Assembly (NCBI RefSeq): GCF_024436055.1 | Contig: NZ_JANFNH010000039.1 | Span: 1 to 64,000, forward strand | Source: Streptantibioticus rubrisoli | GTDB taxonomy: Bacteria; Actinomycetota; Actinomycetes; Streptomycetales; Streptomycetaceae | Direction of reading: 5' to 3' | Length of the DNA: 64,000 nucleotides | Shown here: positions 6,644 through 62,402 of the stretch, piece by piece | Position numbering within the stretch: the first letter of the stretch is position 1 | Layout: the number at the start of each line of letters is the position of its first letter | The notes under the pieces: generated by a model | The model's input: only the letters and a program-made list of their open reading frames with translations | What the model was told of the DNA's origin: nothing | The model's database searches: none | Position numbers and translations under genes: made by a program

Positions 6644-7669
6644 ATGCGAGCAAGAGGAATGACCTACGACGCCGGATTCGTCGTGCACGGCCAGATATCC
6701 CGCGAGCACTTCGACCCCGCGGTGGTCCGGCGCGAGCTCGCCATCATCCGCGACGACCTGCACTGCAACGCGGTCCAGATCATCGGCGGCGACCCGGACC
6801 GACTGGAGCTGGCCGCCGATGCCGCCGCCGAGCTCGGCCTGGAGGTCTGGTTCTCGCCTTATCCGCTGGAGCTGGATCCGGAGCAGATCCTCACGCTCTT
6901 CCGCGACTGCGCCGAGCGAGCGGAACGGCTCCGGCAGCAGGGAGCCACAGTCGTGTTCGTCGCAGGGGTCGAGCTGAGCGTGATGAACCGCGGGTTCCTG
7001 CCCGGAGACAGCCCCGAGGAGCGGGTCGAGCAGCTGATGAGCCAACCTGAGCGGCGGGCCGAAGCGATGCGCGAACTCGGCGTGCGCATCAACACATTCC
7101 TCCGCGACGCCGCAGCCACGGTCCGCGAGCGCTTCCAGGGCAAACTCACCTACGCGTCCATCCAGTTCGAGCAGGTCGACTGGACTCCCTTCGACATTGT
7201 GACGTTCGAGCTGATCCGCTCCGCCGAGGTCGCCGACCGGTTCCGGGACGCGGTGCGCACCCTGGCCCAAGGCCCGAAGCCACTCGCCATCACCGGGTTC
7301 GGCACCGCGGCCTACCGAGGCGCGGGAGACCGCGGTGGGCGGGTGCTGGAAGTGGTCGAGCACGACCCAAAGACCAAGGCGCCTGTACGGCTGAACGGCA
7401 TATACGAGCGTGACGAGGCCGGCCAGGCCGCATATCTGAGCGAACTGCTGGAGATCTTCGAGACCGAGGGCGTGGACAGCGCGTTCGTGTTCTTGTTCGC
7501 CTTGCCTGGCTACCCGCACCGCCCGGACGGCGACCCCAGGGACGACTTGGACCGGGCCGGCCTGGGCATCGTCAAACTCCTCGAAGGGCGCATGGGACAG
7601 ACCTACCCCGACATGGAATGGGAACCCAAGGCCGCCTTCACGGCAGTGGCGCAGCGGTATCGGAGGTGA
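6644..7669 (+). CDS. TIM-barrel glycosidase-like protein of a family sometimes labelled abortive infection protein
   Basis: A 341-residue protein, from ATG 6644 to TGA 7669. Sequence runs like a glycoside-hydrolase-type barrel: RRELAIIRDDLHCNAVQI, LGLEVWFSPYPLEL, VVFVAGVELSVM with a candidate acid Glu, LTYASIQFEQVDWTPFDIV, PLAITGFGTAAYRG and SAFVFLFALPGYPHR. Streptomyces genomes carry several paralogs, often annotated as abortive infection protein without experimental backing. In relatives the strand around PLAITGFG often holds a Glu (TEFG), here Gly, so one usual catalytic acid may be missing. The TetR regulator is divergent and a strong hairpin terminator follows, so this is a one-gene transcript. 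Confidence 0.65.
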   Translation: MRARGMTYDAGFVVHGQISREHFDPAVVRRELAIIRDDLHCNAVQIIGGDPDRLELAADAAAELGLEVWFSPYPLELDPEQILTLFRDCAERAERLRQQGATVVFVAGVELSVMNRGFLPGDSPEERVEQLMSQPERRAEAMRELGVRINTFLRDAAATVRERFQGKLTYASIQFEQVDWTPFDIVTFELIRSAEVADRFRDAVRTLAQGPKPLAITGFGTAAYRGAGDRGGRVLEVVEHDPKTKAPVRLNGIYERDEAGQAAYLSELLEIFETEGVDSAFVFLFALPGYPHRPDGDPRDDLDRAGLGIVKLLEGRMGQTYPDMEWEPKAAFTAVAQRYRR

Positions 7670-7693
7670 CAGGCCCCGCGCACGGTGACCACG

Positions 7694-7732
7694 GCTCGGG
7701 ATCTGCACCGCGGCGCGGTGCAGATCCCGAGC
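7694..7732. terminator. Perfect 18-bp hairpin terminator
   Basis: The arm 7694-7711 (starting GCTCGGGATCTGC) and its exact complement 7715-7732 are separated by only 3 nt. It begins 25 bp after the stop at 7669. The GC-rich stem without a U-tract is typical of Streptomyces. Confidence 0.85.
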
Positions 7733-7734
7733 AG

Positions 7735-8966
7735 ATGGAAGCGATATTCGCCGAACTCGCGGCAGACCTCGCGCCGGTATGCCGCCGCCGCGACCTGCGG
7801 GCCAACGGAGTGTTGTACCTGCGCGGGTTACTGATGCCGGGCGTTGCGGGCAACTGCTGGTCGATCGCGGAGGCGGTCGGCCATGACCGGCCGTATCGCC
7901 TGCACCACCTGCTCGAACGCGCCCACTGAGAGGAGGACGCCGCGAGAGACGGCCGTGGGTCAGCAGTATTCCGGCACGATGGGCCGGGTCGAGAACGTTA
8001 TCGTCGCGGTGTACACGACGTACGCGACCAAGCGGGGCCACGCCCTCATCGACCGGGACCTGTACGTGCAGGCTGACTGGTTCGACGATCCGGCGCGGAT
8101 GGCGACGGCGGGTTTCCCTGAGGATCACGCATTCGCCACCAAGCCGGCGCTCGCCCTCGCGCAGGCGAAACGCGCGCTGGCCGCCGGGGTCAGACCGCAG
8201 TGGGCGACCGGGGACGAGGTGTACGGACGCAGCCGGGAGTTGCGCGAGTTCTTGGAAGGCGCCGGCATCGGCTATGTGTTCGCGGTGGCCGCCAAGCACC
8301 AAGTCACTACCTCCGGCGGCGGCGCATGCGCGCGGACCAGGCACTGCACCTGGTCGATCGGGACGGATGGAACCGCCGCTCGTGTGCAGCGGGCGCGAAG
8401 GTCCTCGCTACTACGACTGGGCCTGGATCGCCACCGACCACCCGCGCCGATGGCTGCTCATCCGCCGCTCCATCGCCGACCCGAGCGAGATCGTGTACTT
8501 CTACGCCTACGCGCCCTAGGGCCATCCCTGCCCCCTGACCGACCTGGTCAAGATCGCCGGGATGAGATGGAGGGTGGAGGACGACTTCCAGGGCTCGAAA
8601 TCCACCGTCTCACTCGACCAGACCCAGGTCAGGCGCTACCGGGCGTGGAAACGCCACGCCACCATGGCCATGGCGGCCCTCGCCCTACTCGCCGTACTCG
8701 CGGCCATCGACAAGACCAGCCACCCCGCTCCCATCCTGCCCGACGATCCCGACCAGGGCCCGCCGGCCGATTGCGGCGCGATCGCGCTGACCGTCCCCGA
8801 GGCCCAGCGGCTGTTTCACCTGCTCACCACGCACATCTGCGACCTACCGCCGCCGACCATGCGCGCCCGGATCGCCCGGCATCTGAACTGGTCCGACTGG
8901 CGACGACACCACCAGGCCCGAGCCCGCTGGCACCACTACCGAACCCGACTCGCCTTCAATGAATGA
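7735..8966 (+). pseudogene. Decayed IS701-family transposase
   Basis: The parts of an IS701-type transposase appear in order but in different frames. Frame 1, 7735-7929: N-terminal domain (LRANGVLYLRGLLMPG, SIAEAVGHDRPYRLHHLL). Frame 2 from about 7955: QQYSGTMGRVENVIVAVY, LIDRDLYVQADWFDDP, FATKPALALAQAKRAL, DEVYGRS. Then a short frame-1 piece (RADQALHLVDRDGWNRR). Frame 3 from about 8400: GPRYYDWAWIATDHPRRW, an in-frame TAG at 8517, then CPLTDLVKIAGMRWRVEDDFQ and the C-terminal LNWSDWRRHHQARARWH. Part of the catalytic region between 7929 and 7955, where VVDETGF-like sequence would be expected, is missing. It is certainly inactive. Confidence 0.85.
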
Positions 8967-9528
8967 CACCGCGTCAGGTCGCGATCTACGGCTGGAGAAC
9001 TACGCGAGGAAGTGGCTCCCAATCTCACTGGAAGACCGGTGCTTGCCGGTCCCGAAAAACTCACACAACCCGTCTCGAACAAACCAACTCCACATGCTTC
9101 GCCCCACGAGAAGCTCGACGACCACCTTGCCACCTAGGGCATGGTCTAGGTCGGGAAATATTTTTGACCAAGAGGTCACTTGGCGTTATGGGGTGGTATT
9201 CGTCGAGGCGGAAGCGTGTTTGGTGGTGCCCGGGGTGCGGGTCGGCGTTATGTGGATGATCGGATGAGCGCGGTCTGCTTGTATCGTGCATCCGGCGGGA
9301 AACTGGCCAGGGTTTCCCGTATGAGAGGGCCGGGGAGTTGCCTATATGAAAAGGCCGATTGGCGCGAAGTCGAATGCCGGTCGACCCCAGCGGACCGGCG
9401 GGCGAATTCCGGTTGCCGATCAGTGGCCTTCTTCGTTGCGTGAATATGCGCGGTAGCTGAATGGGGCCAGCAACCCGTTCTCATCCGGCTACGTCTCTCC
9501 CCTCAAGTCCCCAACAGGGAGGTTCCCC
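8967..9528. other. Intergenic region upstream of the lanthipeptide operon
   Basis: No convincing gene lies here; short frames on both strands have poor codon bias. The stretch is locally AT-rich around 9150-9185 (AAATATTTTTGACC), which could hold a promoter, but no clear -35/-10 pair was found. It must contain the lanA promoter. A ribosome-binding site AGGGAGG at 9516-9522 lies 6 nt before the lanA ATG. Confidence 0.5.
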
Positions 9529-9690
9529 ATGCCATTGGCTGCGACTCTCGAACCCGAAAAGGTCGAGGACGTCTTCGACCTCGACGTCCGCGAGTTCGGC
9601 GGTGAAGCCGACACCGAGATGCGGGCCTTCACCGACTGCACCTGCGTCCCGATCTCGTGCTGCACCTGCATCACCTGCCCGAACTGCTGA
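9529..9690 (+). CDS. lanA: Class I lanthipeptide precursor peptide
   Basis: A 53-residue peptide, too short for most gene callers. The leader (about residues 1-33) contains the FDLD box at 16-19, the FNLD-type motif recognised by class I LanB enzymes, followed by VREFGGEADTE. The core is roughly the last 20 residues, FTDCTCVPISCCTCITCPNC, with 7 Cys and 5 Ser/Thr. The strong AGGGAGG ribosome-binding site is 6 nt upstream, and lanB and lanC follow on the same strand, so this is the substrate they dehydrate and cyclise. Unusual: more cysteines than Ser/Thr, alternating C-T-C blocks, and no obvious protease site; an MRA before the core is one possibility. Core resembles no lantibiotic I know. 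Confidence 0.9.
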   Translation: MPLAATLEPEKVEDVFDLDVREFGGEADTEMRAFTDCTCVPISCCTCITCPNC

Positions 9691-9707
9691 CCGGCCAGTG
9701 AGGTAGA

Positions 9708-9743
9708 GCGGCGGGCGCCCCCGCGAGCGAGGGCGCCCGCCGC
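9708..9743 (+). terminator. Intercistronic hairpin between lanA and lanB
   Basis: GCGGCGGGCGCCC at 9708-9720 pairs exactly with 9731-9743 around a 10-nt loop. Placed just after the precursor gene, it probably acts as a partial terminator or RNA stabiliser so that lanA mRNA exceeds lanB mRNA, as is common in lanthipeptide operons. Confidence 0.75.
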
Positions 9744-9829
9744 GTCCCCGTCCCCTTTCACCTGCGCCGTCCCCCCTGCGCCCGCCGGGCCGTTTCGCGA
9801 TCGGCCCAACACGCCGGAAAGGCAGGCCG

Positions 9830-12800
9830 TTGAACACAGACCCGTTGTTCCGCTGCGAGGAACAGCTCATGCTGCGTGCCCCCGTCCACCCGGTCGCCCG
9901 TGCGCTCGACACGATCGCCGACTGGCCGTGGTCAGTGGGAGAACCGGGAACACCCGAAAGCCCGAGCGCATCGCGCGAGACGGCGCCCGGCGCGCCGGAG
10001 CCGCACGCGCGGCCGGTGGACGGGAAGGAGACGACCGCTGCCGAACTCGCTTCGTGCATCGCAGAGCTGGCGGACGACCCCCTGGTCCGCGAGGCCCTGG
10101 CGGTGTCGAGTCCCTCCCTGGCCAGGGAGATCGAGGCCGTACGAGCGAGCGGGCCGCGCTCGCACACACACGGCCAGCCCGCCGGGCTCGTACGAGTGCT
10201 CCGAGCACTGGCCTTCTACCGGCTCAGAATGTCCGGCAGGCCGACCCCGTTCGGGTTGATGGCCGGGGTGAGCGGGGCCCGGCTCACCGACGACCTGGCC
10301 GAGGTGCGGGGACGGCTCGGGACAGCGCACCGGCGCGCGGTGCGGCCCGACCGCGGCTGGTTGACCGCGCTGGTCGCCGAGTGGGAGCGCCGCCCGCACA
10401 TCCTGCGCGGACTGCGCCTTGTGGCCAACAACCTGTGCTTCGCCCGCAACGGCCGCGTCGTGCTGCCGTATGTACCCGACCTGTCGACCAGCGGACCGCC
10501 CCAGCGCACCCTGCACGAAGTCAGCGTGCGCCACACCGCGGCGGTGCGCACCGTCCTGCGCGCCGCACACCGGCCGACGCTCGCCGCCGACCTCGCCGAT
10601 CGGCTGCTGGCGGAGTTCCCCCAGGCCACGCCGCAGACCGCGCAACAACTCCTGGCCCAACTCGTGGAGAAGGAACTGCTGCTGACCGAGTTGCGTCCGC
10701 CACTGGAGTGCGCCGACCCCCTCGGCTACGTAAGAGCCACGCTGGAGCGCGTACGAGCGGCTCCCGCGCCCTCCTACGTGCCCGCCTCACCGCCTGAGCC
10801 CGCGTCCCCGCCACACGGCCCGCGCCCCGGCGAATTCGACCAGCCCGGTGAGCTCGACCAGATCGACGACGTGCGCCAGGCCATCCGCCACTACGCGGCC
10901 CAGCCTCTCGGCCGTGGGCAGGCGGCGTGGCGGGCGATGGTCGCACGGATGCGCGACCTGTGCCCCGCAGAGCATCCCGCGCACGTGGATCTCCTCCTCG
11001 ACGCCGACGTCCGGCTGCCCCGGACGGCGTCGCAGGAGGTGGCGCGCGCGGCGTCGCTGCTGTGGCGGCTCTCGCCGACCGACGAGGGCAGCCCGGCGCT
11101 GCGGCAGTACCACGCCGACTTCCTGGAGCGATACGGGCAGGGGCGGGCGGTGCCGGTGAAGGAGGCACTCGACCCCGACGTCGGGCTGGGCGCCCCCGCC
11201 GGGTACCGCTGGCCGCCCAGTAGCCGTCCCCAGCCGCCCGAACCACCGCCAGACACCGCACGCGCCCGGCTGCTCGCCGCGCTCGCCCAGGAAGCGACGC
11301 TGACTGCAGCGCAGGAGGTCGTGCTGACCGACGACCATCCGCTGGTCATCGGGCTCGCGCGCGACGAGGGCCGCGCGCCGGACTCGTTCGAGGTCATCGC
11401 CCGGGTGATCGCCCGTTCCGCGCGCGAACTCGCCGAGGGATGCTTCCAGTTGGTGCTGCACGGGGTCTCGCCCTGTGCCGGTGCGGCGCAGGGCAGGTTC
11501 TGGCACCTGCTGCCGGACAAGGAACGGCACGCGCTCAACGAGCTGGCCCGGTTGGCGGCCGCGCCTAACGGCGGCGAGGCCGTGCCGGTGCAACTGTCCT
11601 TCTCCACATCACGAGCACGGCACGCCAACGTCACTCAGGTGCCTTTGTGGCTCGACCGGATGCTGACGGTCGCCGCGTACTGCGATCCGGACGACCCGCG
11701 CACGATCGGCCTCGACGCCCTCGCGCTCCACGCCGACCTCGACGGGCTCCACCTAGTGGACGCCGAGACCGGGCGAGAGGTGCGGCCCCGGACCTTCCAC
11801 ATGCTCAACGTCGGATGGAACGCGCCCAACGCCGCCCGCCTGCTCTCCGAGATCGCCTACAGCGGGGTCCGGGCGTGGCAGCTGTGGCACTGGGGAACCG
11901 CCGACGCCCTGCCGTACCTGCCGCGCGTCCGTTACGGGCGCACGGTGCTGTGCGAGGCCCGCTGGCGCCCCGGGCAGGCACTGCAAGGGGAGTTGGCCGG
12001 TGGATTCGCGCGGTGGGGCGCGGCGGTGGCGGCCTGGCGGCAGCGCTGGCACGTCCCCGAGCGGGTCTGCCTGGCCTACGCCGACCAGCGCACCGAGCTG
12101 GACCTGACCTGCGAGCAGCATCTCGCCCTGCTCAGACACGAGTTGGGCCGCCGCCCTGAGACCGTGCTCCAAGAAAGCCGCGCCGGCGAGTGCGGATGGC
12201 TCGCCGGCCCTGGAGGCGCGCACACCAATGAGGTGGTCTTCCCCCTGGTACGCAAGGCGTGCGACGGTACGGCCTCCACCAACGCTCGCATCGAGACCAA
12301 GTGGTCTCGGCCTCGGCCTGCTGTCGGCAGGCCCGTACACCCACCCGGCGGGGAGTGGTTGTACGCGGCGCTGTTCTGCTCGGCCCAGCGCCATGAGGAG
12401 GTCTTGGCCACCCAGCTCCCCGCATTCCTCGACACGTTGCCCACCGAGGTGGACCGCTGGTTCTTCCTGCGATACGCGGATCCCCGCACCGGCCCGCATC
12501 TGCGCTTGCGACTACACGCGCCCGCGCAGGTCCTGGCCGAACAGGTGCTGCCCGCTCTGCACGCATGGACGGCCAGGCTGCGCTCTCACAGCCTGGCCCA
12601 CCGACTCGTCCTGGACACATACGAGCCGGAGCTGGAGCGGTACGGCGGACCGGAGGCCATCGAGGCGGCGGAGCAGGCCTTCCACGCCGACAGCCGGATG
12701 GTGCTCGCCCAGCTCCAGCTGTTGGCGAACGGCGAACTCACCATAGAGCCGGTGCTGCTGGCCGGCGCCAACCACGTAGACATGGTGCGCCGGTTCTGCG

Positions 12801-13225
12801 GCGGAACCAGCGAACGGGCGCGTGCCCTGTCGCCCGGCGGTGACCCGCCCTGGCTCGACTGGATGCTCGCCACCTTCCCCCGCAAGCAAGCCGAACACCG
12901 CGAGTTCCAGCGGCGGCGCGCTCAGGCCCTCGCCATCGTCGACCCCTATGACAACGGTGGCGGCCTCGCGGAACTGCCCGGCGGCGCGAAGGTGCTGCGG
13001 CTGTGGGAGGAACGCGCCGCGGCGATCGCCGCGTACAGCCAAGTCACCGGCAAACTGGCGGAACCCAACAGCGCCCCCGCCCACCGCGTGCTGCCCTCGC
13101 TGCTGCACATGCACGCCAACCGCCTGCTGGGCATGGACCGTGACGCCGAACGCGCCTCGTACGCCATCGCACGCGGCGCACTCCAAGCCCACCGGGACCG
13201 CCGAGTCCACGGAGGCAACCGATGA
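9830..13225 (+). CDS. lanB: Full-length class I lanthipeptide dehydratase
   Basis: A 1131-residue single-chain LanB, the expected length for an enzyme containing both glutamylation and elimination domains. It uses glutamyl-tRNA to glutamylate Ser/Thr of the precursor and then eliminates glutamate to give dehydroalanine/dehydrobutyrine. N-terminal dehydratase part: RVLRALAFYRLRMSGR followed by PTPFGLMAGV near residue 140, the standard motif. C-terminal SpaB_C-type elimination domain from about residue 840: EWLYAALFCSAQRHEEV and DRWFFLRYADPRTGPHLRLR. TTG start at 9830 with GGAAAGGCAGG upstream; the next in-frame residues match family N-termini (DPLFRCEEQLMLRAP). Its ATGA overlaps the lanC start, so translation is coupled. 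A paper-thin alternative is a thiopeptide dehydratase, but those are split into two proteins. Confidence 0.95.
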   Translation: MNTDPLFRCEEQLMLRAPVHPVARALDTIADWPWSVGEPGTPESPSASRETAPGAPEPHARPVDGKETTAAELASCIAELADDPLVREALAVSSPSLAREIEAVRASGPRSHTHGQPAGLVRVLRALAFYRLRMSGRPTPFGLMAGVSGARLTDDLAEVRGRLGTAHRRAVRPDRGWLTALVAEWERRPHILRGLRLVANNLCFARNGRVVLPYVPDLSTSGPPQRTLHEVSVRHTAAVRTVLRAAHRPTLAADLADRLLAEFPQATPQTAQQLLAQLVEKELLLTELRPPLECADPLGYVRATLERVRAAPAPSYVPASPPEPASPPHGPRPGEFDQPGELDQIDDVRQAIRHYAAQPLGRGQAAWRAMVARMRDLCPAEHPAHVDLLLDADVRLPRTASQEVARAASLLWRLSPTDEGSPALRQYHADFLERYGQGRAVPVKEALDPDVGLGAPAGYRWPPSSRPQPPEPPPDTARARLLAALAQEATLTAAQEVVLTDDHPLVIGLARDEGRAPDSFEVIARVIARSARELAEGCFQLVLHGVSPCAGAAQGRFWHLLPDKERHALNELARLAAAPNGGEAVPVQLSFSTSRARHANVTQVPLWLDRMLTVAAYCDPDDPRTIGLDALALHADLDGLHLVDAETGREVRPRTFHMLNVGWNAPNAARLLSEIAYSGVRAWQLWHWGTADALPYLPRVRYGRTVLCEARWRPGQALQGELAGGFARWGAAVAAWRQRWHVPERVCLAYADQRTELDLTCEQHLALLRHELGRRPETVLQESRAGECGWLAGPGGAHTNEVVFPLVRKACDGTASTNARIETKWSRPRPAVGRPVHPPGGEWLYAALFCSAQRHEEVLATQLPAFLDTLPTEVDRWFFLRYADPRTGPHLRLRLHAPAQVLAEQVLPALHAWTARLRSHSLAHRLVLDTYEPELERYGGPEAIEAAEQAFHADSRMVLAQLQLLANGELTIEPVLLAGANHVDMVRRFCGGTSERARALSPGGDPPWLDWMLATFPRKQAEHREFQRRRAQALAIVDPYDNGGGLAELPGGAKVLRLWEERAAAIAAYSQVTGKLAEPNSAPAHRVLPSLLHMHANRLLGMDRDAERASYAIARGALQAHRDRRVHGGNR

Positions 13226-14610
13226 CCCATCCCCACTCCGGCGCGCCGTCGGCCGCCGATCCCACCCGCCCCAGCGGTCCCACCGCACCAGGTGACGCCA
13301 CTCGGCCGGAGGATGAACTTGCCGCCCACGCGCGGCGAATCGCCGCCGACATTGCCGCCCGTCTCGCAGACCCGGAGCAGGTGGCCGCCACGGCCACCGC
13401 GCCGGACAACCTCGTACGGTTCCCCGGCCAGCCCGCCTTCGGGCCCTGGGCGCCACTGGCGCTCGCCGAGGGGTTCTCCGGAACCGCACTGCTCCACGCG
13501 GAACTTGCGACCGCCGACCCGAGTCACAGACGCCTCGCCCACGCCCATCTCGCACGGGCCGCACGGTCGTTGCCCGCCGGTGGGCACCCCGGCGGGCTCT
13601 TCCAGGGCCCGGCGTCGCTGGCCTTCGCCGCCCTGGCGGCCCGGCAGGCACCCGGCGACTACGCGGCCCTGCTCGAGCGACTCGACGGCGTGATCGTCCG
13701 GCGCACCCGGGAACTACTCGCCGCCGAGTCCGAGCGCCTCGCGGCCGGGCAGGCCGGGGTGAGCATGCACACGTACGATCTGATCAGCGGCGTCACTGGA
13801 CTCGCGCGCTACCTGCTGGCACGCCAACCACGCCACGACGACCTGGTAGCCGACGCCTGCCGTTACCTGGTCCGGCTAGCCCAGCCCATCACGGTGGCCG
13901 GGACGCCGCTTCCCGGGTGGTGGGCGCCCCACACGCCGACGATCGGCCGGGAAGCCGACTTCCCCCACGGGCACGTCAACCTCGGCCTCGCGCACGGTAT
14001 TTGCGGACCACTCGCGCTGCTGGCTACCGCGCGCACCCTGGGCGTGAAGGTGACCGGGCAGGACGAGGCGATCGCCGCCATCGCCCGGTGGGTGCTGGAG
14101 CGACAGCTGCCCGGCGGCCAATGGCCCGCGATCGTACGCCCGGAGGACCTGCTACCGGGCGCCCCGCCGGGCGAGCCCACTGGTCGCACGGCGTGGTGCT
14201 ACGGCACACCCGGCGTAGCACGCGCCCTCTTCCTAGCCGGCCGATGCCTGGAACGCGCGGACTGGCGAGGCGCGGCCCTTGACGCGCTCGCCGAGGCCCT
14301 GTCCGACCCATACGGGATGCACGACTGGGCGCTGTGCCACGGCTGGTCCGGACTGCTCCAGGTGACCTGGCGGATGGCGCACGACAGTGGCGACGCGCGG
14401 CTGGCGAGGCGCCTGCCGGACCTCGCCCGGCACATCCTCGCAAACTACGCGCCCGACGCCCCCTTCGGCCTGCGCCACGATGACCCCCTCCAGGCTCGCG
14501 ACCGCGCCGGACTCCTCGAAGGCGCGGCCGGAGCCGCGCTCGCCCTCCACACCTACGCCTGCGACATGCCACCCCACACGGCCTGGGACGCCGCCTTCGG
14601 CCTCGTCTGA
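13222..14610 (+). CDS. lanC: Lanthipeptide cyclase LanC
   Basis: A 462-residue zinc-dependent cyclase that adds Cys thiols to dehydrated residues to form (methyl)lanthionine rings. The three LanC blocks are present: LAHGICGPLALL near residue 257, AWCYGTPGVARAL with zinc ligand Cys326, and LCHGWSGLLQ with ligands Cys372 and His373. The first 60 residues are a low-complexity Pro/Ala extension before the alpha-toroid starts. The ATG at 13222 overlaps the lanB stop by 4 nt. No LanD, LanT, protease, immunity or regulator gene follows: the operon ends here and the next kilobase is gene debris, so export and leader removal must be provided elsewhere or have been lost. Confidence 0.95.
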   Translation: MTHPHSGAPSAADPTRPSGPTAPGDATRPEDELAAHARRIAADIAARLADPEQVAATATAPDNLVRFPGQPAFGPWAPLALAEGFSGTALLHAELATADPSHRRLAHAHLARAARSLPAGGHPGGLFQGPASLAFAALAARQAPGDYAALLERLDGVIVRRTRELLAAESERLAAGQAGVSMHTYDLISGVTGLARYLLARQPRHDDLVADACRYLVRLAQPITVAGTPLPGWWAPHTPTIGREADFPHGHVNLGLAHGICGPLALLATARTLGVKVTGQDEAIAAIARWVLERQLPGGQWPAIVRPEDLLPGAPPGEPTGRTAWCYGTPGVARALFLAGRCLERADWRGAALDALAEALSDPYGMHDWALCHGWSGLLQVTWRMAHDSGDARLARRLPDLARHILANYAPDAPFGLRHDDPLQARDRAGLLEGAAGAALALHTYACDMPPHTAWDAAFGLV

Positions 14611-49036: not shown

Positions 49037-50671
49037 GTGACCCAGGTGAACAGTCCGGACTGCATACTCATCGGCTTCAACGAAATAGACTTCGCCGACT
49101 TCGCGCGGGCCCAGAAGGTCTTCGAGCAGAACTCCGGCGCCTACCGCGAGTTGTTGACGAACTCGGTGCTGCTCGGCGACCGCCGTATGACCTACATGGA
49201 CCTGCTCAACGTGGTGCGGGAGCACATGACGGGACAGCCGTCCCGGCTGACCGCGTTCGAGATGCCGAGCCTCGGCGTGGCGTATCTGACCAGCTTCCTG
49301 CGCCGCCGGGGATTCGACGTGGGTGTCGTCAACTTCTTCAACACCGGCAAGGGCGATCTGGCCGCTATGCTGGCGGGCACACCACGGGCGGTGGCGATCA
49401 CCACCACGTACTACGTCGATGACGAACCGATTCGCCAGATCATCCGGTTCGTCCGCGAGCACAATCCCGAAGTCCCCGTCATCGTCGGCGGCCCCCGGGT
49501 GCACAACCTCTGTGCCGGGCAGCCGCCGCAGGTTCAGGACGTCCTGTTGAAGGCGCTGGGCGCCGACATCTACATCGACAGCGCACAGGGGGAGGACTCG
49601 CTCGCCGGGGTGCTGGGCGCACTGCGCGACAAGGGCGGTGACTTAAGTGGTACCCCGAACCTGATCTACCGCTCCCCGCGGGACCCGCGAGGCCCGATGG
49701 TGCGGACACTGCCGATGGTCGAGAACAACGACCTGAACGAGAACGCGGTCGACTGGTCGTACTTCGAGCCCGACTACTTCGCGCCGACCACCTACATGCG
49801 CACCTCGCGCAGTTGCTCGTTCGGCTGCGCCTTCTGCAACTACCCGGCGATGGCCGGTCCGTTGACGTTGAGCGACCTGTCCACCATAGAGAACGAGTTG
49901 CGTTACCTGTGCGAGAAGGGAGTGCGCAACCTCATCTTCGTGGACGACACCTTCAACGTACCGCTGCCCAGGTTCAAGAAGATCTGCCGGATGATGATCG
50001 AGAACCGGTTCGACCTGCGTTGGGTGTCCTTCTTCCGCTGCTCCAACGCGGACGACGAGGCCTTCGACCTGATGGCCGAGGCGGGATGCATGGGGGTGTT
50101 CCTCGGCATCGAGTCAGGGGATCAGCGGATCCTCAAGAACATGACCAAGTTCGCCAGGACGGACAGGTACGAGTACGGCATCAGGGAACTCACCAGACGC
50201 GGCATCGTCACCCTCGCCTCCATCGTGCTCGGCTTCCCCGGCGAGAACGAGGAGAGCGTCAACAACACCATCGACTTCCTCAACCGCACCCAACCCACCT
50301 TCTACAACGTCCAGCTCTACTACCACGACGTGCTCGCGCCCATCGAGCAGCAGCGGCAGAAGTACGGCATCGAGGGCAGCGGCTACTCGTGGCGGCACTC
50401 GACCATGAGCTGGCAGGAGGCGGCCGACTGGAAGGACGCCTTCGTCCGGCGGGTCCGGGGCCCGGCCCTGATGCCGCTGTACGGACTGAGCATCTGGTGC
50501 ATCCCCTATCTGATCTCCCAGGGCATGACCATGGACGAGATCATCCGGTTCACCAAGAGCGCCACCCAACTGGTGGTCAAGGGACTGGACGCCGACTACA
50601 TCGCGCCGGAACCGGAGATCGAGACGCTCGCCCAGGCACTGGCCGGCGCACCGGCCGCCGTTGGTGGGTAG
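49037..50671 (+). CDS. Cobalamin-dependent radical SAM methyltransferase, PhpK-like
   Basis: A 544-residue class B radical SAM enzyme. An N-terminal B12-binding region (about 70-210: EMPSLGVAYLTSFLRRRGFD, VAITTTYYVDDEPIRQIIRF, VPVIVGGPRVHN, GADIYIDSAQGE) precedes the radical SAM barrel with cluster motif Cys260-x3-Cys264-x2-Cys267 (RSCSFGCAFCNY), LIFVDDTFNVPLPRFKKIC and GVFLGIESGDQRIL. Overall wording is closest to PhpK, the P-methyltransferase of phosphinothricin biosynthesis, but related enzymes also methylate carbon. Codon 203 is TTA (49643-49645). GTG at 49037 has CCAGGAG 7 nt upstream. Its stop overlaps the thioesterase start. No phosphonate genes are visible, so C-methylation of an unactivated carbon is the more likely role. 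Confidence 0.85.
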   Translation: MTQVNSPDCILIGFNEIDFADFARAQKVFEQNSGAYRELLTNSVLLGDRRMTYMDLLNVVREHMTGQPSRLTAFEMPSLGVAYLTSFLRRRGFDVGVVNFFNTGKGDLAAMLAGTPRAVAITTTYYVDDEPIRQIIRFVREHNPEVPVIVGGPRVHNLCAGQPPQVQDVLLKALGADIYIDSAQGEDSLAGVLGALRDKGGDLSGTPNLIYRSPRDPRGPMVRTLPMVENNDLNENAVDWSYFEPDYFAPTTYMRTSRSCSFGCAFCNYPAMAGPLTLSDLSTIENELRYLCEKGVRNLIFVDDTFNVPLPRFKKICRMMIENRFDLRWVSFFRCSNADDEAFDLMAEAGCMGVFLGIESGDQRILKNMTKFARTDRYEYGIRELTRRGIVTLASIVLGFPGENEESVNNTIDFLNRTQPTFYNVQLYYHDVLAPIEQQRQKYGIEGSGYSWRHSTMSWQEAADWKDAFVRRVRGPALMPLYGLSIWCIPYLISQGMTMDEIIRFTKSATQLVVKGLDADYIAPEPEIETLAQALAGAPAAVGG

Positions 50672-51449
50672 CTACCGGGCGGCGCCGGGCGGCTGGCTGC
50701 GCGTGTGGCGGCCCCGACCCGAGGCACGGCTACGGCTGCTGTGCCTGCCGCCCGCCGGAGCCGCCGCCGCGCTGTACCAGCCGTGGACCGGCCCGCTGCC
50801 GCCGTACGTCGAACTCGCCGCCGTCGAGCCCCCCGGACGCGGCACCCGGTACGGCGAGCCGTACCCCACCTCGTTCCGGCAGATCGTGGACCCGGTGCTC
50901 GACGCGCTCTCGCTCCTGCCGCCCAAACCGGTGGCGGTCTACGGGCACAGCATGGGCGCGATCGCGGCGCTGGAGACCGCGAGGGCGCTGCGGGACGGCG
51001 GAACGCCACCGGTCGCGCTGCTGGTGTCAGCGCGCAACGCCCCAGCGGTACGCGGCACGGACGAGGAGACATGGCCCGACCTGACCGACGCCCAACTGTC
51101 CACGCTGCTACGGAACCTCGGCGGCCTGGACGCCGAAACCCTTGACGATCCCCGGCTGATGGCGACGGTACTGCCCGCGGTGCGCGCGGACATCGCCGTC
51201 CTCTCGGCCTACCAGTACACCCCCGCGCCACCGCTGGCGTGCCCCGTACGGGCCTACGCGGGCACCGGGGACACCGGGACGACACCGGCCGGGCTGGCCC
51301 TGTGGCGCCGGGAGAACCCGGCGGACTTCCGGCTGCATCGCGTGCCCGGCGGCCACTTCTTCTTCCGAGGACGTGAAGCGCACCACATCGCACGGCTCAT
51401 GAGCGACCTCACGCCGACCGCCGCCGGGCGGGGTGCGGCGTGGCGCTAG
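50664..51449 (+). CDS. Type II thioesterase
   Basis: A 261-residue alpha/beta-hydrolase of the TEII family: RLLCLPPAGAAAALYQPW, ELAAVEPPGRGTRYGEP, nucleophile elbow YGHSMGAI (Ser96), Asp in YAGTGDTG, His in PGGHFFFRGRE. TEII enzymes remove wrong or stalled acyl groups from carrier domains, here presumably from the NRPS encoded immediately downstream. GTG at 50664 overlaps the radical SAM stop by 8 bp; a TTG three bases earlier is possible. Confidence 0.9.
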   Translation: MGSYRAAPGGWLRVWRPRPEARLRLLCLPPAGAAAALYQPWTGPLPPYVELAAVEPPGRGTRYGEPYPTSFRQIVDPVLDALSLLPPKPVAVYGHSMGAIAALETARALRDGGTPPVALLVSARNAPAVRGTDEETWPDLTDAQLSTLLRNLGGLDAETLDDPRLMATVLPAVRADIAVLSAYQYTPAPPLACPVRAYAGTGDTGTTPAGLALWRRENPADFRLHRVPGGHFFFRGREAHHIARLMSDLTPTAAGRGAAWR

Positions 51450-51492
51450 CAGCGGACTCCGCCGCCGACGGCGGAAGAAGGGACGAACCCTG

Positions 51493-54462
51493 ATGGCGGG
51501 TACCGACTCCGCACCCCTTTCCGGACCGCCGTCCGATCAGCTGCCGTTGGGCGGTCCCGCGCGGTGCGTCGCCGCGGCAGGGACGATCAGCGGCCAGGTG
51601 GATGTCCCGGCGCTGCGCGCCGGGTTGCACCGCACCGCCGAGTTGCTGCCCGCGCTGCGCTTCGAGACCGGACCCGGCCTGACCGTCCTGGACCTGCGCC
51701 ATGTGCCGGCCAGCGAACGGGAGGAGGCGACACGGGAGGTCCTCGGCGAGCTGGTGCTGGCCCCCTGGAGCGCGCAGGGCCCGGCGCTGCGCGCCCGCCT
51801 GCTGCTCGTTCCGGACGGTGCCGTGCTGGCGGCGGCCGCGCGACGCGACGTGCTTGACGAGCCGGGATTCACCCGCTTCCTGGTTGACGCCTGCGCCCCG
51901 GACGAACCCCCGGTGTCCGCCGCGTCGGACGGCGACGGGACACCGGCGGCCTCGGACGGCGCGGCTGAGCACTGGAAGGATCTGGCCGGCTGTCTGCCGC
52001 CGTTCTCGCTCCCCACCGATCGGCCGCGCCCGCCCGCGCTCTGCGGTGACTGCGCGACCGTATCGCTGACCATCGCGGAGGAACTCGCCCCTCGGCTGAG
52101 CGAGTTGGCCGACGAGTGCGGAGCCGACACCGCCACGGTCATGCTCGCCGGGGTGCACGTACTGCTGAGCCGGATGGGCGCGGACGCGGAGACGGCCGTC
52201 ACTTTGACCGCCGGGGCCGGTGACCGGTCGGTGAGCCTGGCCAGCCTCGCGGACGGCCCGTCCTTCCGCACGCTGCTGGAGCGGGTGCGCGACACACGGT
52301 TCGCCGAGGCCGAACACGGCCCAGCGCCCGAGGAGTTGTACACCGCCGTGGCCCTGACCGTGCGTGACCGCGCCCTGCTGCCGCCTCGGGCGGTCGGCGG
52401 CCTGCCGTTGACGCCGCTGCGGCTGCCGCGCGTCGTATCGGCGCACGAGCTGCGGTTCGTGCTGGAGCCGCGGCCCGGCGGCGGCTGGGGCGGCCAGCTT
52501 GAGTACGCGCCCGAGGTGTTCGACCGGGTGACCGCCGAGCGGCTCGCGTCGCGCTACCGGCTGGTGCTGGCGGCGGCCGCTGACTGCCCGGACACCCCGG
52601 CCTCCCGGCTTCCCATCCTCACCGCGGCCGAACGGCGGCTGGTGACCGTGGAGTGGAACCGTACCGAGACCAGCGCGCAGCCCGACCAGTGCCTGCACGA
52701 ACTGATCCGCCAGCAGGCGCGCCTCACCCCGGACGCCCCGGCGGCCCGCTGTGGCGAAACGGTTCTGACGTACGGTCAGTTGGAGCGGCGAGCCAACGGT
52801 CTCGCCCGGTCGCTGGCGGAGCACGGTGCCGGGCCCGGTCGGACCGTGGGCATCTGCGCCCAGCGGTCGGTCGACATGGTGGTGGCAGTCGTGGCCGTCA
52901 TGACGGCGGGCGCCGCCTATGTGCCCCTGGATCCCGCGTACCCGGCGGAACGGCTGGCGTTCATGGTCGAGGACAGCGCTGTGCCCGTGATCCTCACGGA
53001 CCGCTCCTCGGCCGAACTGCTCGACGAGCGGCGGGTGGCCCTTCTGCGGCTGGATTCGACGCAGACCGCCGCCACCGCGCCGCACACCTCGGTGACCCCC
53101 GACTCACTCTGCTACGTCATCTACACCTCCGGCTCCACCGGTCTGCCGAAGGGCGCGGCGAACACCCACCGGGGCGTGCTGAACACCATGAGGTCGCTGG
53201 TGAGCCGACTGCGGCTGGACACGGCGACGCGCCTGCTGCAGGCTTCCTCGCTCAACTTCGACATGTCCGCCTTCGACATCCTGGCCACCTTGTTGTCCGG
53301 CGGCTGCCTGGTCATACCGGAGCAACACGAGGCGACGGAACCGGCCCGGCTGCTCGACCTGGCGCACCGCGCGGACCTCACCGTCTGGAGTTCCACCCCC
53401 GCGCTCTTCCGCGGCGCGCTCGACGAGGCGTACGCGACCGGCCGCGGGCTGCCGCCGCGGCTGCGGACCGTGGCACTGGGCGGCGACCGGTTCCCCGCCG
53501 AGGTGCCCGAACTGCTGGCGGACCTGGCGCCGGGCTGCCGCGCGTTCAACTTCGCCGGTATGACCGAGGTCTCCTTCACCACCACCGCCCACCCGGTGAC
53601 CGTGGCCGACGCCCGGCGTACGAGCGTGCCCTGGGGACGGCCGCTGCCCGGGCAGCGGATGTACGTGCTCGACGAGTACGGCGAACCGGTGCCTCCCGGC
53701 GCCCCGGGCGAGCTCTACATCGGCGGAGCGGGCGTCGGCCCCGGCTACTGGAACCGGCCCGAACTCAGCGCCGAGCGGTTCGTGGCCGACCCGTTCGCGG
53801 ACGAACCCGACGCGCGCATGTACCGCACCGGGGACCGGGTACGGCACCTGCCGGACGGGGCCGTCGAGTTCCTGGGACGCCTGGACCACCAGGTCAAGGT
53901 GCGCGGGTTCCGGATCGAGACCGGTGAGATCGAGGCGGCGCTCACGCTCCACCCCCAGGTGCGGGACGCCGTGGTCGAAGCGCGGGAACACGAATCCGGC
54001 GGCGACCGCAGGCTGATCGCGCACATCGTGCTCAACGCGCCGGAACGGCCGTTGTCCGTGGAGGAGTTGCGCGGCTTCCTGGCCACGCGTCTGCCGGATC
54101 CGATGATCCCCTCGGTGTTCCTGACGCGGCCCTCGCTCCCCCTGACACCGGGCGGGAAGATCGACCGGGCCGCGCTGGCCGCGGTCGTCGTACCCAACGG
54201 CCGGCCGCTTCTCGACGCCCCCTACGAGGCGCCGCGCGACGAGTTGGAGCGCACCATCGCCGCCGAGTGGGAGCGGATCCTGGGGATCAGCGGAGTGGGC
54301 GCGCACGACGAGTTCTCGGCCCTGGGCGGCCACTCGCTGCTGGCGACGGCGACGATGGCGGCGCTCTCCGAGCAACTGGGCGTGCCCCTGTCGGCGCGGG
54401 ACCTGTTCGAGGCGTCGACCCCGGCGCGGCTCGCCAAGCGCGTACGGTCAACCGCCCGCTAG
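51493..54462 (+). CDS. Single-module NRPS: degenerate C, A and PCP domains
   Basis: A 989-residue synthetase. Residues 1-380 have condensation-domain character, but the HHxxxDG motif is absent (AAARRDVLDE stands in its place), so it is probably structural. Adenylation domain about 395-890: VMTAGAAYVPLDPAYP, YVIYTSGSTGLPKGAANTH, LNFDMSAFDI, NFAGMTEVSFTT, GELYIGGAGVGPGYWNRPE, YRTGDR, GRLDHQVKVRGFRIETGEIE, LTPGGKIDRAAL. Carrier domain about 905-985 with the phosphopantetheine Ser in LGGHSLLATA. By eye the specificity code reads D-M-F-S-A-G-F-F-T-K, which I cannot assign. ATG at 51493. It activates and tethers one amino acid for modification by partner enzymes; no release domain is attached. Confidence 0.92.
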   Translation: MAGTDSAPLSGPPSDQLPLGGPARCVAAAGTISGQVDVPALRAGLHRTAELLPALRFETGPGLTVLDLRHVPASEREEATREVLGELVLAPWSAQGPALRARLLLVPDGAVLAAAARRDVLDEPGFTRFLVDACAPDEPPVSAASDGDGTPAASDGAAEHWKDLAGCLPPFSLPTDRPRPPALCGDCATVSLTIAEELAPRLSELADECGADTATVMLAGVHVLLSRMGADAETAVTLTAGAGDRSVSLASLADGPSFRTLLERVRDTRFAEAEHGPAPEELYTAVALTVRDRALLPPRAVGGLPLTPLRLPRVVSAHELRFVLEPRPGGGWGGQLEYAPEVFDRVTAERLASRYRLVLAAAADCPDTPASRLPILTAAERRLVTVEWNRTETSAQPDQCLHELIRQQARLTPDAPAARCGETVLTYGQLERRANGLARSLAEHGAGPGRTVGICAQRSVDMVVAVVAVMTAGAAYVPLDPAYPAERLAFMVEDSAVPVILTDRSSAELLDERRVALLRLDSTQTAATAPHTSVTPDSLCYVIYTSGSTGLPKGAANTHRGVLNTMRSLVSRLRLDTATRLLQASSLNFDMSAFDILATLLSGGCLVIPEQHEATEPARLLDLAHRADLTVWSSTPALFRGALDEAYATGRGLPPRLRTVALGGDRFPAEVPELLADLAPGCRAFNFAGMTEVSFTTTAHPVTVADARRTSVPWGRPLPGQRMYVLDEYGEPVPPGAPGELYIGGAGVGPGYWNRPELSAERFVADPFADEPDARMYRTGDRVRHLPDGAVEFLGRLDHQVKVRGFRIETGEIEAALTLHPQVRDAVVEAREHESGGDRRLIAHIVLNAPERPLSVEELRGFLATRLPDPMIPSVFLTRPSLPLTPGGKIDRAALAAVVVPNGRPLLDAPYEAPRDELERTIAAEWERILGISGVGAHDEFSALGGHSLLATATMAALSEQLGVPLSARDLFEASTPARLAKRVRSTAR

Positions 54463-54473
54463 GCGCCCGCGGT

Positions 54474-55271
54474 TCAGCGTCGGTGGACCAACAGGCTCTG
54501 CGCGGAGCGGGCGACCGGCCCGTCCTCGTCGTAGAGGGTGGCGGTGGCCAGCCCGGCCCGACCGGGACCGAGGCTGGTCTCCGCGTCCAGACACAGCCAC
54601 TCGCCGACCGGGGGACGCAGCAGGTGGACGGTCAACTCCGGTGGAACGAAGCCCCATTGCCGGATGTCCAGTACGGCGCTGACACCGTTGGCGGAGTCGG
54701 CGGACAGCACGGTCCGCTGGAACGGTGACATCGGCTCGTCGGGCAGCAGGGGCAACCTCGGCCGCAGCCACACTGCGGCGGGTCCCAGCCCGCCGTAGCC
54801 GCCATGGACGAAGGACCACTCGACCGACTCCAGGAAGCCGCACCGCCAGTGGGCCGGGGCGCCCGGCACCGTCGCCGGTCCGTCCGCCCTCGGCGCGGGC
54901 GGCTTCTCCACCATGCCGTCGGCGGGCACGTCATCGGGCGCCTCAAGCACGCACCACGCCGACGCGTACACCAACGTCCGCTCGGCGGCGCGCAGTTCGC
55001 CACGCACCAGCCGCACCCGCCGACCCGGACGCTCGACCCACGCCCGGACCGTCAGCGGTCGCAGCGGCACGGGGCCGAGGATGTCGTACGAGATCCGGGC
55101 CAAGGACAGATCCGTGCCCGCGCACCGCTCCAGCTCGCGGGCGAGCAGCGCCCCCGGCGGCCCGAAGTGCTGCAGCCCGGGGTCCCACGGCCCCTGGGTG
55201 TGCGTCGTCGGGCGGTACGCGCCGCCGTCCGCGGTGTCGACGGGCTCGAAGTAGGCGTCGGCGTCAGGCAT
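54474..55271 (-). CDS. Acyl-CoA thioesterase-like (hot-dog) protein
   Basis: A 265-residue double hot-dog protein of the TesB/thioesterase-like type: GPPGALLARELERC, LARISYDILGPVPLRPLTVRAWVERPGRRVRLVRGELRA in the first half, and SPFQRTVLSADSANGVSAVLD, FVPPELTVHLLRPPVGEWLCLDAET in the second. Such proteins hydrolyse acyl thioesters or act as dehydratase-like folds. Last gene of the minus-strand arm, ending 11 bp from the stop of the convergent NRPS gene. Start ATG at 55271 overlaps the nitroreductase end by 8 bp. Confidence 0.8.
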   Translation of the reverse strand: MPDADAYFEPVDTADGGAYRPTTHTQGPWDPGLQHFGPPGALLARELERCAGTDLSLARISYDILGPVPLRPLTVRAWVERPGRRVRLVRGELRAAERTLVYASAWCVLEAPDDVPADGMVEKPPAPRADGPATVPGAPAHWRCGFLESVEWSFVHGGYGGLGPAAVWLRPRLPLLPDEPMSPFQRTVLSADSANGVSAVLDIRQWGFVPPELTVHLLRPPVGEWLCLDAETSLGPGRAGLATATLYDEDGPVARSAQSLLVHRR

Positions 55272-55821
55272 GGGGCTCCAGCATGCTCAGCTTCTCCCGT
55301 ACGTCGAACGGCGCCCGGGGCGGTGCCGCCGCCGGACCGTCAGGCGTACCAACGTACAGCCAACCGAGCAGCCGCTCCCCGGGGTCCAGACCGAGACATT
55401 CGCGCACTGCAGGAGAGTCGACCGCGTTCCCGGTGCGCCAGATCGCGCCCCAGCCACGGCTGTGCAGCAGCAGATGCAGCGTGTGGACCATGGAGACGGT
55501 CGCGGCCAGTTGCTCCCACTCCGGGACCTTGGGGTGGGGCAGTCGTGGGCACAGCACGATGGAGATCAGCAACGGGGCGCGCAGCGGCTTGGTGCGTGCC
55601 TGTTCGGCCCGTACCGGATCGTCCGTGCCGCGGGCGAGCGCCGCCCCCAGCCGGTCCCGGGCGGTACCCCTGACCGTCACCAGCCGCCAGGGGCGCAGCC
55701 GCCCGTGGTCGGGGGCGGTCGATGCGACCTGGAGCAGTTCCAGCAGGGTGTCGTCGTCCGGGCCCGGGGCAGCCAGCCGGGTGACGCTCCGGCGGGTCAG
55801 TACGGTCTGCATGACGTCCAT
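55264..55821 (-). CDS. Nitroreductase-family flavoprotein
   Basis: A 185-residue FMN-dependent protein: LTRRSVTRLAAPGPDDDTL (FMN phosphate contacts), ASTAPDHGRLRPWRLVTVRG, TVSMVHTLHLLLHSRGWGAIWRTGN, LLGWLYVGTPDG. Members reduce nitro or quinone groups or oxidise C-N/C-C bonds in azoline- and diketopiperazine-type pathways. Cytoplasmic dimer in known cases. ATG at 55821, following the M81-type gene by 9 bp. In this cluster it could dehydrogenate or reduce the nascent product; direction cannot be predicted. Confidence 0.88.
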   Translation of the reverse strand: MDVMQTVLTRRSVTRLAAPGPDDDTLLELLQVASTAPDHGRLRPWRLVTVRGTARDRLGAALARGTDDPVRAEQARTKPLRAPLLISIVLCPRLPHPKVPEWEQLAATVSMVHTLHLLLHSRGWGAIWRTGNAVDSPAVRECLGLDPGERLLGWLYVGTPDGPAAAPPRAPFDVREKLSMLEPHA

Positions 55822-55830
55822 GCCACTCCT

Positions 55831-57351
55831 TCAGCTCTGCTGCCCGCCGGACACGACGTGTGGGGCGGCCATCGGCCACAGCGCGCGTGTCGGACCGGAG
55901 CGGGGGATCTGCTCGATGCCCCTGGCCGTCGGCCCCGGCGCGTCCGCGACCACCATGTGCCCGGACACCTGCGCGAACCCGGCCCTGAAGTGGTTGACCG
56001 ACTTCACGGCGACGATCCGGTACCGCCGTGGGACCACGCCGTGCAGCAACAGGATCTCCGGGTCGAGTACCTGGCGGCGTTGCGAGGCCACGATCACCTC
56101 GCAACGCCCCACGGTGATCCGGACGCTCGGGCCGAAGTCCGCCCGTTTGCCCCGCCGCATCGCGGTCTGCGTGATCACCCCGTCCGTGACAGCCCGGACC
56201 GTGCCCACCGCCTCGACGGGTGGGCCGCTGGCCCAGCCGTGCCGACCGCCGAGCCGCACGTCGAGCGTGTTGCCGACGCCCGCCGCCACCGCCGTCGCGA
56301 CCGTCTCGGGGTCCCACAGGGTCGCGAAGCAGGTCGCAACGGGCGCCTCCAACAGGGCGCGCAGCAGATGGGTGTTGTCGCCCGTCGCGCCGCAGCCGGG
56401 ATTGTCGCTGCCGTCGCCGACGACGACCGTGGGTTCCTCGGAGGCGAGCGCCAGGCGCACCGCCTCAACGGGTGCCAGCAAGGTGGGGCGGAAGCGCTCC
56501 CGCTGGCCGTCCAGCCACGCGGCGGCTTCGTCGCAGCACCGCTGGGCGAGCCCCGGGTCGCCGTCGGTGACCGTCACGACGCTGGTGGCGGCCTGTTCGG
56601 TGTCGGCGTACGGGAAGCCGTGGAAGGCGGCGCAGGCCAGGACCCCGGGACGTTCCTCGATCTCCCGGACCAGATCGCGCAGTTCACGTGCGGGCGACCC
56701 GGCGACGGTGGGCGAGGGCGGCAGCAGCATGGGCAGCCTGCGCTGCCGGATCACCGGCCGGATCGTGCCCCGCGCGGCGGCGACCGCCAGTTCGCCCGCG
56801 AGGCGGGCGCGGTCGGCGGCGTCCGTGTGCGGATACTCGTGGAAACCGGTCACCACGTCGGCCAGGTCGAGCAGTTCGTCGGGGACGTTTGCGTGCAGGT
56901 CCATGGTGACGGCGATCACCGCGTCGGGCAGCAGCTGCCGTACCCGGCGCAGCACGGCCACGTCCAGGGAGCGGTCCGGCGCGATCACGCCCGCGCCGTG
57001 CAGGTCGAGCAGGACCACCTCGCAGTCGCCCGCCTCGCACAGCGCACCCGACAACCTTTGTTCCAAGGCGAGATGAGCGTCACCCGAGATGGCGGGGCCG
57101 GGCTCGGCGCGGGCGTGGAACGCCGGACGCACCTGTGCGCCGACCGCCGCACAGGCGGCCAGGTAGCCGCCGGTCACGGTGGCCGTCCCACCGAACTCGG
57201 TGAGCAGATCCGGCCCTTGGTGGCAGGAGAACGCCGACAGTTCGGCCGTTCCCAGGTATTCGACCATGAAGGTGCTGGACTCGTGCACGAGCCCGCCAAC
57301 GGCCGCCCGCACCACGCGCGCCGACGGTCCGGCACAGCCGCGGGCGGTCAC
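55831..57351 (-). CDS. M81/MlrC-like metallohydrolase
   Basis: A 506-residue protein of the microcystinase-C-like family: AVGGLVHESSTFMVEY, VVLLDLHGAGVI, IAVTMDLHANVPDELLDLADVVTGFHEYPHTDAADRA, then VVGDGSDNPGCGATGDNTHLL and the C-terminal domain with NIVAV-type strand (RIVAVKSVNHFRAGF). The conserved H-E, D-H and H-x-x-P-H residues needed for a bound metal are present. MlrC cleaves peptide or amidine-like bonds; other members work in specialised pathways. GTG at 57351 overlaps the RraA gene stop (GTGA). Could trim, deprotect or hydrolyse an intermediate. Confidence 0.85.
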   Translation of the reverse strand: MTARGCAGPSARVVRAAVGGLVHESSTFMVEYLGTAELSAFSCHQGPDLLTEFGGTATVTGGYLAACAAVGAQVRPAFHARAEPGPAISGDAHLALEQRLSGALCEAGDCEVVLLDLHGAGVIAPDRSLDVAVLRRVRQLLPDAVIAVTMDLHANVPDELLDLADVVTGFHEYPHTDAADRARLAGELAVAAARGTIRPVIRQRRLPMLLPPSPTVAGSPARELRDLVREIEERPGVLACAAFHGFPYADTEQAATSVVTVTDGDPGLAQRCCDEAAAWLDGQRERFRPTLLAPVEAVRLALASEEPTVVVGDGSDNPGCGATGDNTHLLRALLEAPVATCFATLWDPETVATAVAAGVGNTLDVRLGGRHGWASGPPVEAVGTVRAVTDGVITQTAMRRGKRADFGPSVRITVGRCEVIVASQRRQVLDPEILLLHGVVPRRYRIVAVKSVNHFRAGFAQVSGHMVVADAPGPTARGIEQIPRSGPTRALWPMAAPHVVSGGQQS

Positions 57352-62287: not shown

Positions 62288-62402
62288 GGGGCTCCTCCGC
62301 GCGTTAGGGAAACGGGTGGGAAGTGCTGTGCCGGGGCCGCCAGGACGGAGACGGCCGTGCGGGTGTGAAGGCGGTGACGTTGCTGGGGAGTTGAGTGGTC
62401 GG

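What the first reader, a model, noticed from the sequence alone, without database searches (positions are those of the whole stretch)
9529..14610. Minimal lanABC operon with an exceptionally Cys-rich precursor core
The 20-residue core has 7 Cys against 5 Ser/Thr in C-T-C-x-x-x-S-C-C-T-C-x-T-C-x-x-C order. At most 5 lanthionine rings can form, leaving at least two thiols for disulfides or metal. No transporter, protease, LanD or immunity gene is present. I know no lantibiotic with this core.
Basis: partly seen in the sequence, partly recalled or inferred. Interest (0 to 1): 0.7.

Follow-up and report, generated by a model that had tools for sequence, protein, structure and literature searches.

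The report
Cysteine-rich class I lanthipeptide operon
A three-gene operon in an actinobacterium looks set to make a small ring-bearing peptide of a known type (a class I lanthipeptide); its peptide is unusually dense in cysteine, but the operon and its enzymes are of an ordinary kind with many relatives.

Summary
A 53-residue precursor (9529-9690) precedes a full-length class I LanB (9830-13225) and a LanC (13222-14610); its last 20 residues carry 7 Cys and 5 Ser/Thr. The precursor is credible as a gene: ribosome-binding site, FDLDVRE leader box like its relatives', and a strong hairpin after lanA that most tested relatives share. Positions recalled as catalytic in NisB/NisC are kept.

The bare lanABC layout is not special. 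The LanB lies in a clade with 13 other distinct loci; an ABC transporter family was detected beside 3 of them, with an imperfect gene finder. All 12 clade precursors found have [FL]DLD[VIL]RE, but their cores differ widely (1-7 Cys).

The Cys density is extreme: among 79 hand-selected precursors, window included, none other reaches 7 Cys in the last 20 residues; two have 6, one of them in the same clade. No relative with the same core was found in the collections searched.

Best reading: a class I lanthipeptide with up to five (Me)Lan rings and probably one or two cysteines outside them, exported and trimmed by proteins encoded elsewhere. A new member of a known kind with an unusual core. Rings, thiols, export and activity are untested.

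The parts
9517..9522 (+). ribosome-binding site GGGAGG of lanA
   Evidence: read from the sequence
9529..9690 (+). lanA, 53-residue precursor
   Evidence: ORF; G+C by codon position 0.55/0.49/0.87; relatives share its leader box; no Pfam, NCBIfam or PDB sequence match
9574..9594 (+). leader box FDLDVRE (residues 16-22)
   Evidence: [FL]DLD[VIL]RE in 12 of 12 clade precursors found, window included; the search rule asked for an FxLD-type box, not for the following RE
9628..9687 (+). C-terminal 20 residues, 7 Cys and 5 Ser/Thr; true cleavage site unknown
   Evidence: sequence; highest Cys count in the last 20 residues among 79 selected precursors
9708..9743 (+). hairpin between lanA and lanB, probable attenuator or 3' stabiliser of lanA mRNA
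   Evidence: folding z -2.07, 6 of 200 shuffles fold as well; stem reached by 2 of 300 shuffles
9830..13225 (+). lanB, full-length class I dehydratase
   Evidence: Pfam PF04738 and PF14028; best PDB sequence match 5ehk_A, 3.5e-138
13222..14610 (+). lanC, cyclase
   Evidence: Pfam PF05147; PDB matches 8byk_A and NisC 2g02_A; WCYGTPG at residue 325, LCHGWSG at 371

Best explanation
A class I lanthipeptide operon. LanB, guided by the FDLDVRE leader box, glutamylates and dehydrates Ser/Thr of the core from glutamyl-tRNA, and LanC adds Cys thiols to the dehydro residues. A published positional rule gives T49-C53, T46-C50, S43-C47 (three overlapping i/i+4 rings), T38-C45 and T35-C44, with C37 and C39 outside rings; these I expect to be oxidised to a disulfide or left as thiols. 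Export and leader removal are done by proteins encoded elsewhere. Shown here: gene order, domains, kept catalytic positions, leader box, hairpin. Inferred: dehydration, rings, fate of spare thiols, export, cleavage, activity. The confidence is for the class I lanthipeptide reading; for the exact ring pattern I would give about 0.2.
For: Both dehydratase domains and a LanC. Aligned to NisB (with positions), residues that I recall as catalytic are kept: R137/T139 (NisB R87/T89), R894 (R786), R937 (R826), H1093 (H961); LanC keeps the recalled zinc-ligand motifs. LanB groups with 13 other distinct lan loci at support 100; 11 of these 13 have a leader-box precursor and 11 of 13 a LanC. The hairpin after lanA is above chance (at most 9 of 300 shuffles) in 9 of 11 clade loci tested, window included.
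Against: No exporter or protease was seen among the window stretches scanned. The two congener genomes have no match to LanB and no relative shares the core, so nothing shows that this core is under selection. The i/i+4 register is weak: 1.6% of shuffles for that spacing, 8% over the best of six spacings. L082 and L104 fail the hairpin test (30 and 267 of 300). The ring rule is said by its authors to be weaker for complex peptides (PMC11251773 section 3.6).
Confidence: 0.8

Rival explanations
1. The operon is silent or decaying: enzymes and leader are recognisable, but with no dedicated exporter or protease no mature peptide is released.
For: No exporter or protease among the window stretches scanned; no LanB match in the two congener genomes.
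Against: All three frames are open, lanA keeps coding-like third-position G+C, catalytic positions are kept, and relatives with the same bare layout exist.
Confidence: 0.1
2. The peptide is chiefly a thiol or metal-binding peptide, with LanBC making few or no rings.
For: C-T-C, C-C, C-x-C and C-x-x-C spacing; sulfur-uptake type genes and a SAM-IV riboswitch start about 1.3 kb downstream.
Against: The Cys spacing is not kept in clade relatives. The adjacency to sulfur genes was not tested in relatives. Two spare Cys would be few for a metal site.
Confidence: 0.08
3. A thiopeptide-type or other azole-bearing RiPP.
For: Cys-rich core recalls thiopeptide cores; the LanB C-terminal domain matches TIGR03891, thiopeptide-type bacteriocin biosynthesis.
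Against: LanB is one full-length protein and a LanC follows; no YcaO appeared among the window stretches scanned. The match to the thiopeptide pyridine synthase model is far below its cut-off (19.4 against 325 bits). I did not search the rest of the genome for YcaO.
Confidence: 0.02

Closest known systems
Microbisporicin (NAI-107) system, MibB
   Same: 5EHK (recalled to be MibB) is the closest solved LanB by sequence over nearly the whole length; acidic leader with a DLD box (microbisporicin leader recalled)
   Different: Loci with NAI-107-like cores (CTPGCTS..GGGS.C; L138, L142, L143, and L147 as listed) sit in a separate, supported part of the LanB tree; this core has no such motif
Embleporicin (EmpABC, Embleya sp. 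NF3; PMC11672506, passages seen)
   Same: Class I lanABC with a short precursor and no LanP in its cluster; L020 fits the paper's description of EmpA (59 aa, LRAA-DFGK site, 26-residue core with 3 Ser, 2 Thr, 4 Cys)
   Different: Other LanB clade (L020), LDLD leader, core with GVQSxCxxCC; its cluster was drawn with 18 genes
coi and olv class I clusters of Streptomyces (PMC9486935, passages seen)
   Same: LanB, LanC and precursor, no protease in the cluster
   Different: They encode an O-methyltransferase; none was named among the window stretches scanned
The LanB clade found here, especially L076 (Streptomyces pinistramenti)
   Same: LanB 44%, LanC 48% identical, same leader box, hairpin after lanA, Cys-rich core VITSSCKCTCCWCTRATC
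   Different: Cores score no better than shuffles against each other (z 0.4); L076 has an ABC transporter gene nearby on the other strand

Membership tests
Class I lanthipeptide | LanB with glutamylation and elimination domains | tested here: met
   PF04738 and PF14028; recalled catalytic positions kept
Class I lanthipeptide | stand-alone LanC with Cys-Cys-His zinc ligands | tested here: met
   PF05147; WCYG and LCHG motifs; ligand identity recalled
Class I lanthipeptide | precursor with FxLD-type leader and Ser/Thr and Cys in the core | tested here: met
   FDLDVRE box; 7 Cys, 5 Ser/Thr in the last 20 residues
Class I lanthipeptide | (methyl)lanthionine in the product | not testable with these tools
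   needs mass spectrometry
Microbisporicin-like lantibiotics | NAI-107-like core and LanB of that clade | tested here: not met
   core lacks the motif; LanB outside that clade
Methyltransferase-bearing (olv/coi type) class I lanthipeptides | O-methyltransferase in the cluster | tested here: inconclusive
   none named among the window stretches scanned; not every ORF was scanned
Thiopeptide | split LanB, YcaO cyclodehydratase and pyridine synthase | tested here: not met
   LanB is full-length and followed by LanC; no YcaO named nearby; pyridine synthase model far below cut-off

The most novel reading that the evidence does not exclude
This operon belongs to a clade of stand-alone lan modules that keep one leader box and enzyme pair while carrying unrelated cores, even within one genome, and this core yields a compact lanthipeptide with three overlapping i/i+4 rings plus a free or disulfide-bonded thiol pair.
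Probability: 0.3. Interest if true: 0.5.

Novelty: new member of a known kind. Interest (0 to 1): 0.3.

Why it matters
As a single case it adds one uncharacterised lanthipeptide. The clade is of more use: one kind of leader box and enzyme pair goes with cores of 1 to 7 Cys, so these LanB and LanC proteins may accept very different substrates. This core is a hard test of how a class I cyclase chooses among crowded cysteines.

Tried and rejected
Thiopeptide reading: set aside because LanB is full-length, LanC follows and no YcaO was named nearby. Recent gain of the cluster: the two congener genomes have no LanB match, and the downstream permease had matches of 50% identity at best there, so I had no matching site to compare; I did not follow this further.

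Same-core relatives. Precursor against plasmids: no match. 121 family genomes, E up to 1: 15 with matches, of which one outside the own genome reached 6.4e-4 (L039, core different); the weaker ones were mostly chance, though L042 and L051 are precursors beside LanB. 297 family genomes with A1: 15 matched at E 0.1; those below 1e-4 were precursors beside LanB, weaker ones mixed. 394 family genomes with A2: 26 matched at E 0.01. 394 class genomes with A1: the own genome alone. No core read from these equals the window's. In the profile searches a first look passed on only part of its candidates (17 to 22 scored for most genomes), so misses are possible.

Literature: searches. Fragments of this core and of the L076 core occur in none of the held papers; most subscription journals and all supplements lie outside that. 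The clade as such was not seen described in these searches.

Weak leads: the i/i+4 spacing; a 13-base near-repeat in the core (9636 and 9660), which the repeated C-T-C-[VI] and the codon use (all 7 Cys TGC) would give anyway. Structure prediction was not used.

Limits of counts. The 79 precursors (window included) were picked by hand from script candidates, dropping near-identical peptides and implausible ORFs; the rule required an FxLD-type box, an acidic leader and at least one Cys, and loci without a recognised precursor were left out, so this is no random sample. In one search the gene finder missed LanC in 7 of 14 loci and the ABC ATPase in the window, and some flanks are cut by contig ends, so transporters can be missed. 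In one search cores were cut at 26 residues, which makes some Cys look free (17 of 79 rows had one).

Full report
Observation. The precursor has a GGGAGG ribosome-binding site, a FDLDVRE leader box and a C-terminal 20-mer, FTDCTCVPISCCTCITCPNC, with 7 Cys and 5 Ser/Thr. It matches no NCBIfam model (E up to 1), no Pfam model (E up to 0.1) and no PDB sequence (E up to 10). Of 798 frames of 40 aa or more in the window it is the one with 7 or more Cys in its last 20 residues, and one of two with an F.LD[VIL][RQE] box.

Enzymes. LanB carries both dehydratase domains. Its best PDB sequence match is 5ehk_A, which I recall to be MibB of microbisporicin biosynthesis. In the alignment to NisB (positions) residues that I recall as catalytic are kept: R137/T139 (NisB R87/T89), R894 (R786), R937 (R826), H1093 (H961); NisB numbers were counted along the printed chain. 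LanC keeps WCYG and LCHG.

Organism. The window's genus has three genomes in the set and the other two have no LanB match. The family is probably Streptomycetaceae: unnamed same-family contigs have the lengths of named contigs of Streptacidiphilus carbonis, Streptomyces violascens, Streptomyces catenulae and Kitasatospora sp. GAS204B. The own genome holds one LanB match, this one.

Clade. A LanB tree of 92 rows (quick method, SH-aLRT only) puts the window in a 15-row clade with support 100; two of the rows are one locus seen twice (L071, L079), so there are 13 other distinct loci: 11 Streptomyces, one Saccharopolyspora, one unnamed. A leader-box precursor was found in 11 of 13 (not L078, L116) and a LanC in 11 of 13 (not L078, L080). 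The 12 precursors, window included, all have [FL]DLD[VIL]RE; an FxLD-type box was part of the search rule, the RE was not. After the box they hold 1 to 7 Cys, and 10 of 11 comparisons with the window score below z 3 against shuffles (the highest are 3.2 for L081 and 2.6 for L072).

Layout. Over the 14 clade loci, LanB and LanC apart, the gene families shared by more than two loci were frames antisense to LanC (4 loci) and an ABC transporter family (3 loci: L072, L075, L076), the latter confirmed by Pfam. In L075 the transporter genes lie between lanA and lanB. The gene finder missed LanC in 7 of 14 loci and also missed the window's own uptake-type ABC ATPase, so this count is a lower bound. 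About one third of lanthipeptide clusters lack protease genes (PMC8960859, passages) and actinobacterial ones typically do (PMC11672506, passages). After lanA the window has a 36-nt hairpin. In 9 of 11 clade loci tested, window included, the longest stem in up to 140 nt after lanA is reached by 9 or fewer of 300 shuffles; L082 (30) and L104 (267) fail; L072 was not tested.

How unusual is the core? Among 79 selected precursors, Cys in the last 20 residues: 7 in one (window), 6 in two (L076, L138), 5 in seven, 4 in twenty, 3 in thirty-seven, 2 in ten, 1 in two. By Cys minus Ser/Thr over a wider core the window (+1) ties with three others and L126 exceeds it (+2); by Cys fraction L076 is slightly higher (0.29 against 0.28). 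Known lanthipeptides reach seven bridges (geobacillin I, elgicin; PMC11251773 section 3.6, read), so seven Cys is not beyond precedent; the density is what stands out.

Mechanism. The rule of PMC11251773, which its authors report right for 92 of 100 known peptides but weaker for complex ones, gives T49-C53, T46-C50, S43-C47, T38-C45 and T35-C44 with C37 and C39 free, or C37 alone if T29 is used. The i/i+4 register is weakly above chance (1.6% for that spacing, 8% over six spacings). Disulfide, thiol or metal for the rest is inference.

Verdict. A class I lanthipeptide operon of ordinary build with an extreme core: a new member of a known kind. The better supported general point is a class I clade with one leader box and unlike cores; conserved leaders with non-conserved cores are described for class II families (PMC7268733 section 7, read).

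Noticed in passing
window 15903-38086: A SAM-IV riboswitch (98.9 bits) precedes an amino-acid-type ABC uptake system whose ATPase scores best with cystine TcyN (below cut-off); further on lie several luciferase-like monooxygenases, a dimethylsulfone monooxygenase SfnG (above cut-off), a sulfonate/taurine-type ABC system and a PRK13800 flavoprotein: apparently a sulfur-scavenging region.
   Followed up: partly
window 7618-8966: Transposase remnant or gene with a DDE_5 domain left of the lan operon, and a near-perfect palindrome with 19-nt arms at 7694-7732.
   Followed up: no
window 49037-63350: A likely second biosynthetic region: B12-binding radical SAM protein, thioesterase, an NRPS-like protein with partial condensation, AMP-binding and carrier domains, an enolase-superfamily protein, a haem-oxygenase-like protein and an HMGL-like protein.
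   Followed up: no
L078 and L080: LanB of the same clade, but no LanC match at E 1e-3 within the fetched flanks.
   Followed up: no
L016, L018, L070, L088 and others: The precursor gene lies upstream of lanB on the opposite strand, a divergent layout, with small cores such as SISCEGSCTRPYCI and CFRTCTTCALC.
   Followed up: no
L076, L077, L082: Three lan loci of the same LanB clade in one Streptomyces pinistramenti genome, each with a different core.
   Followed up: partly
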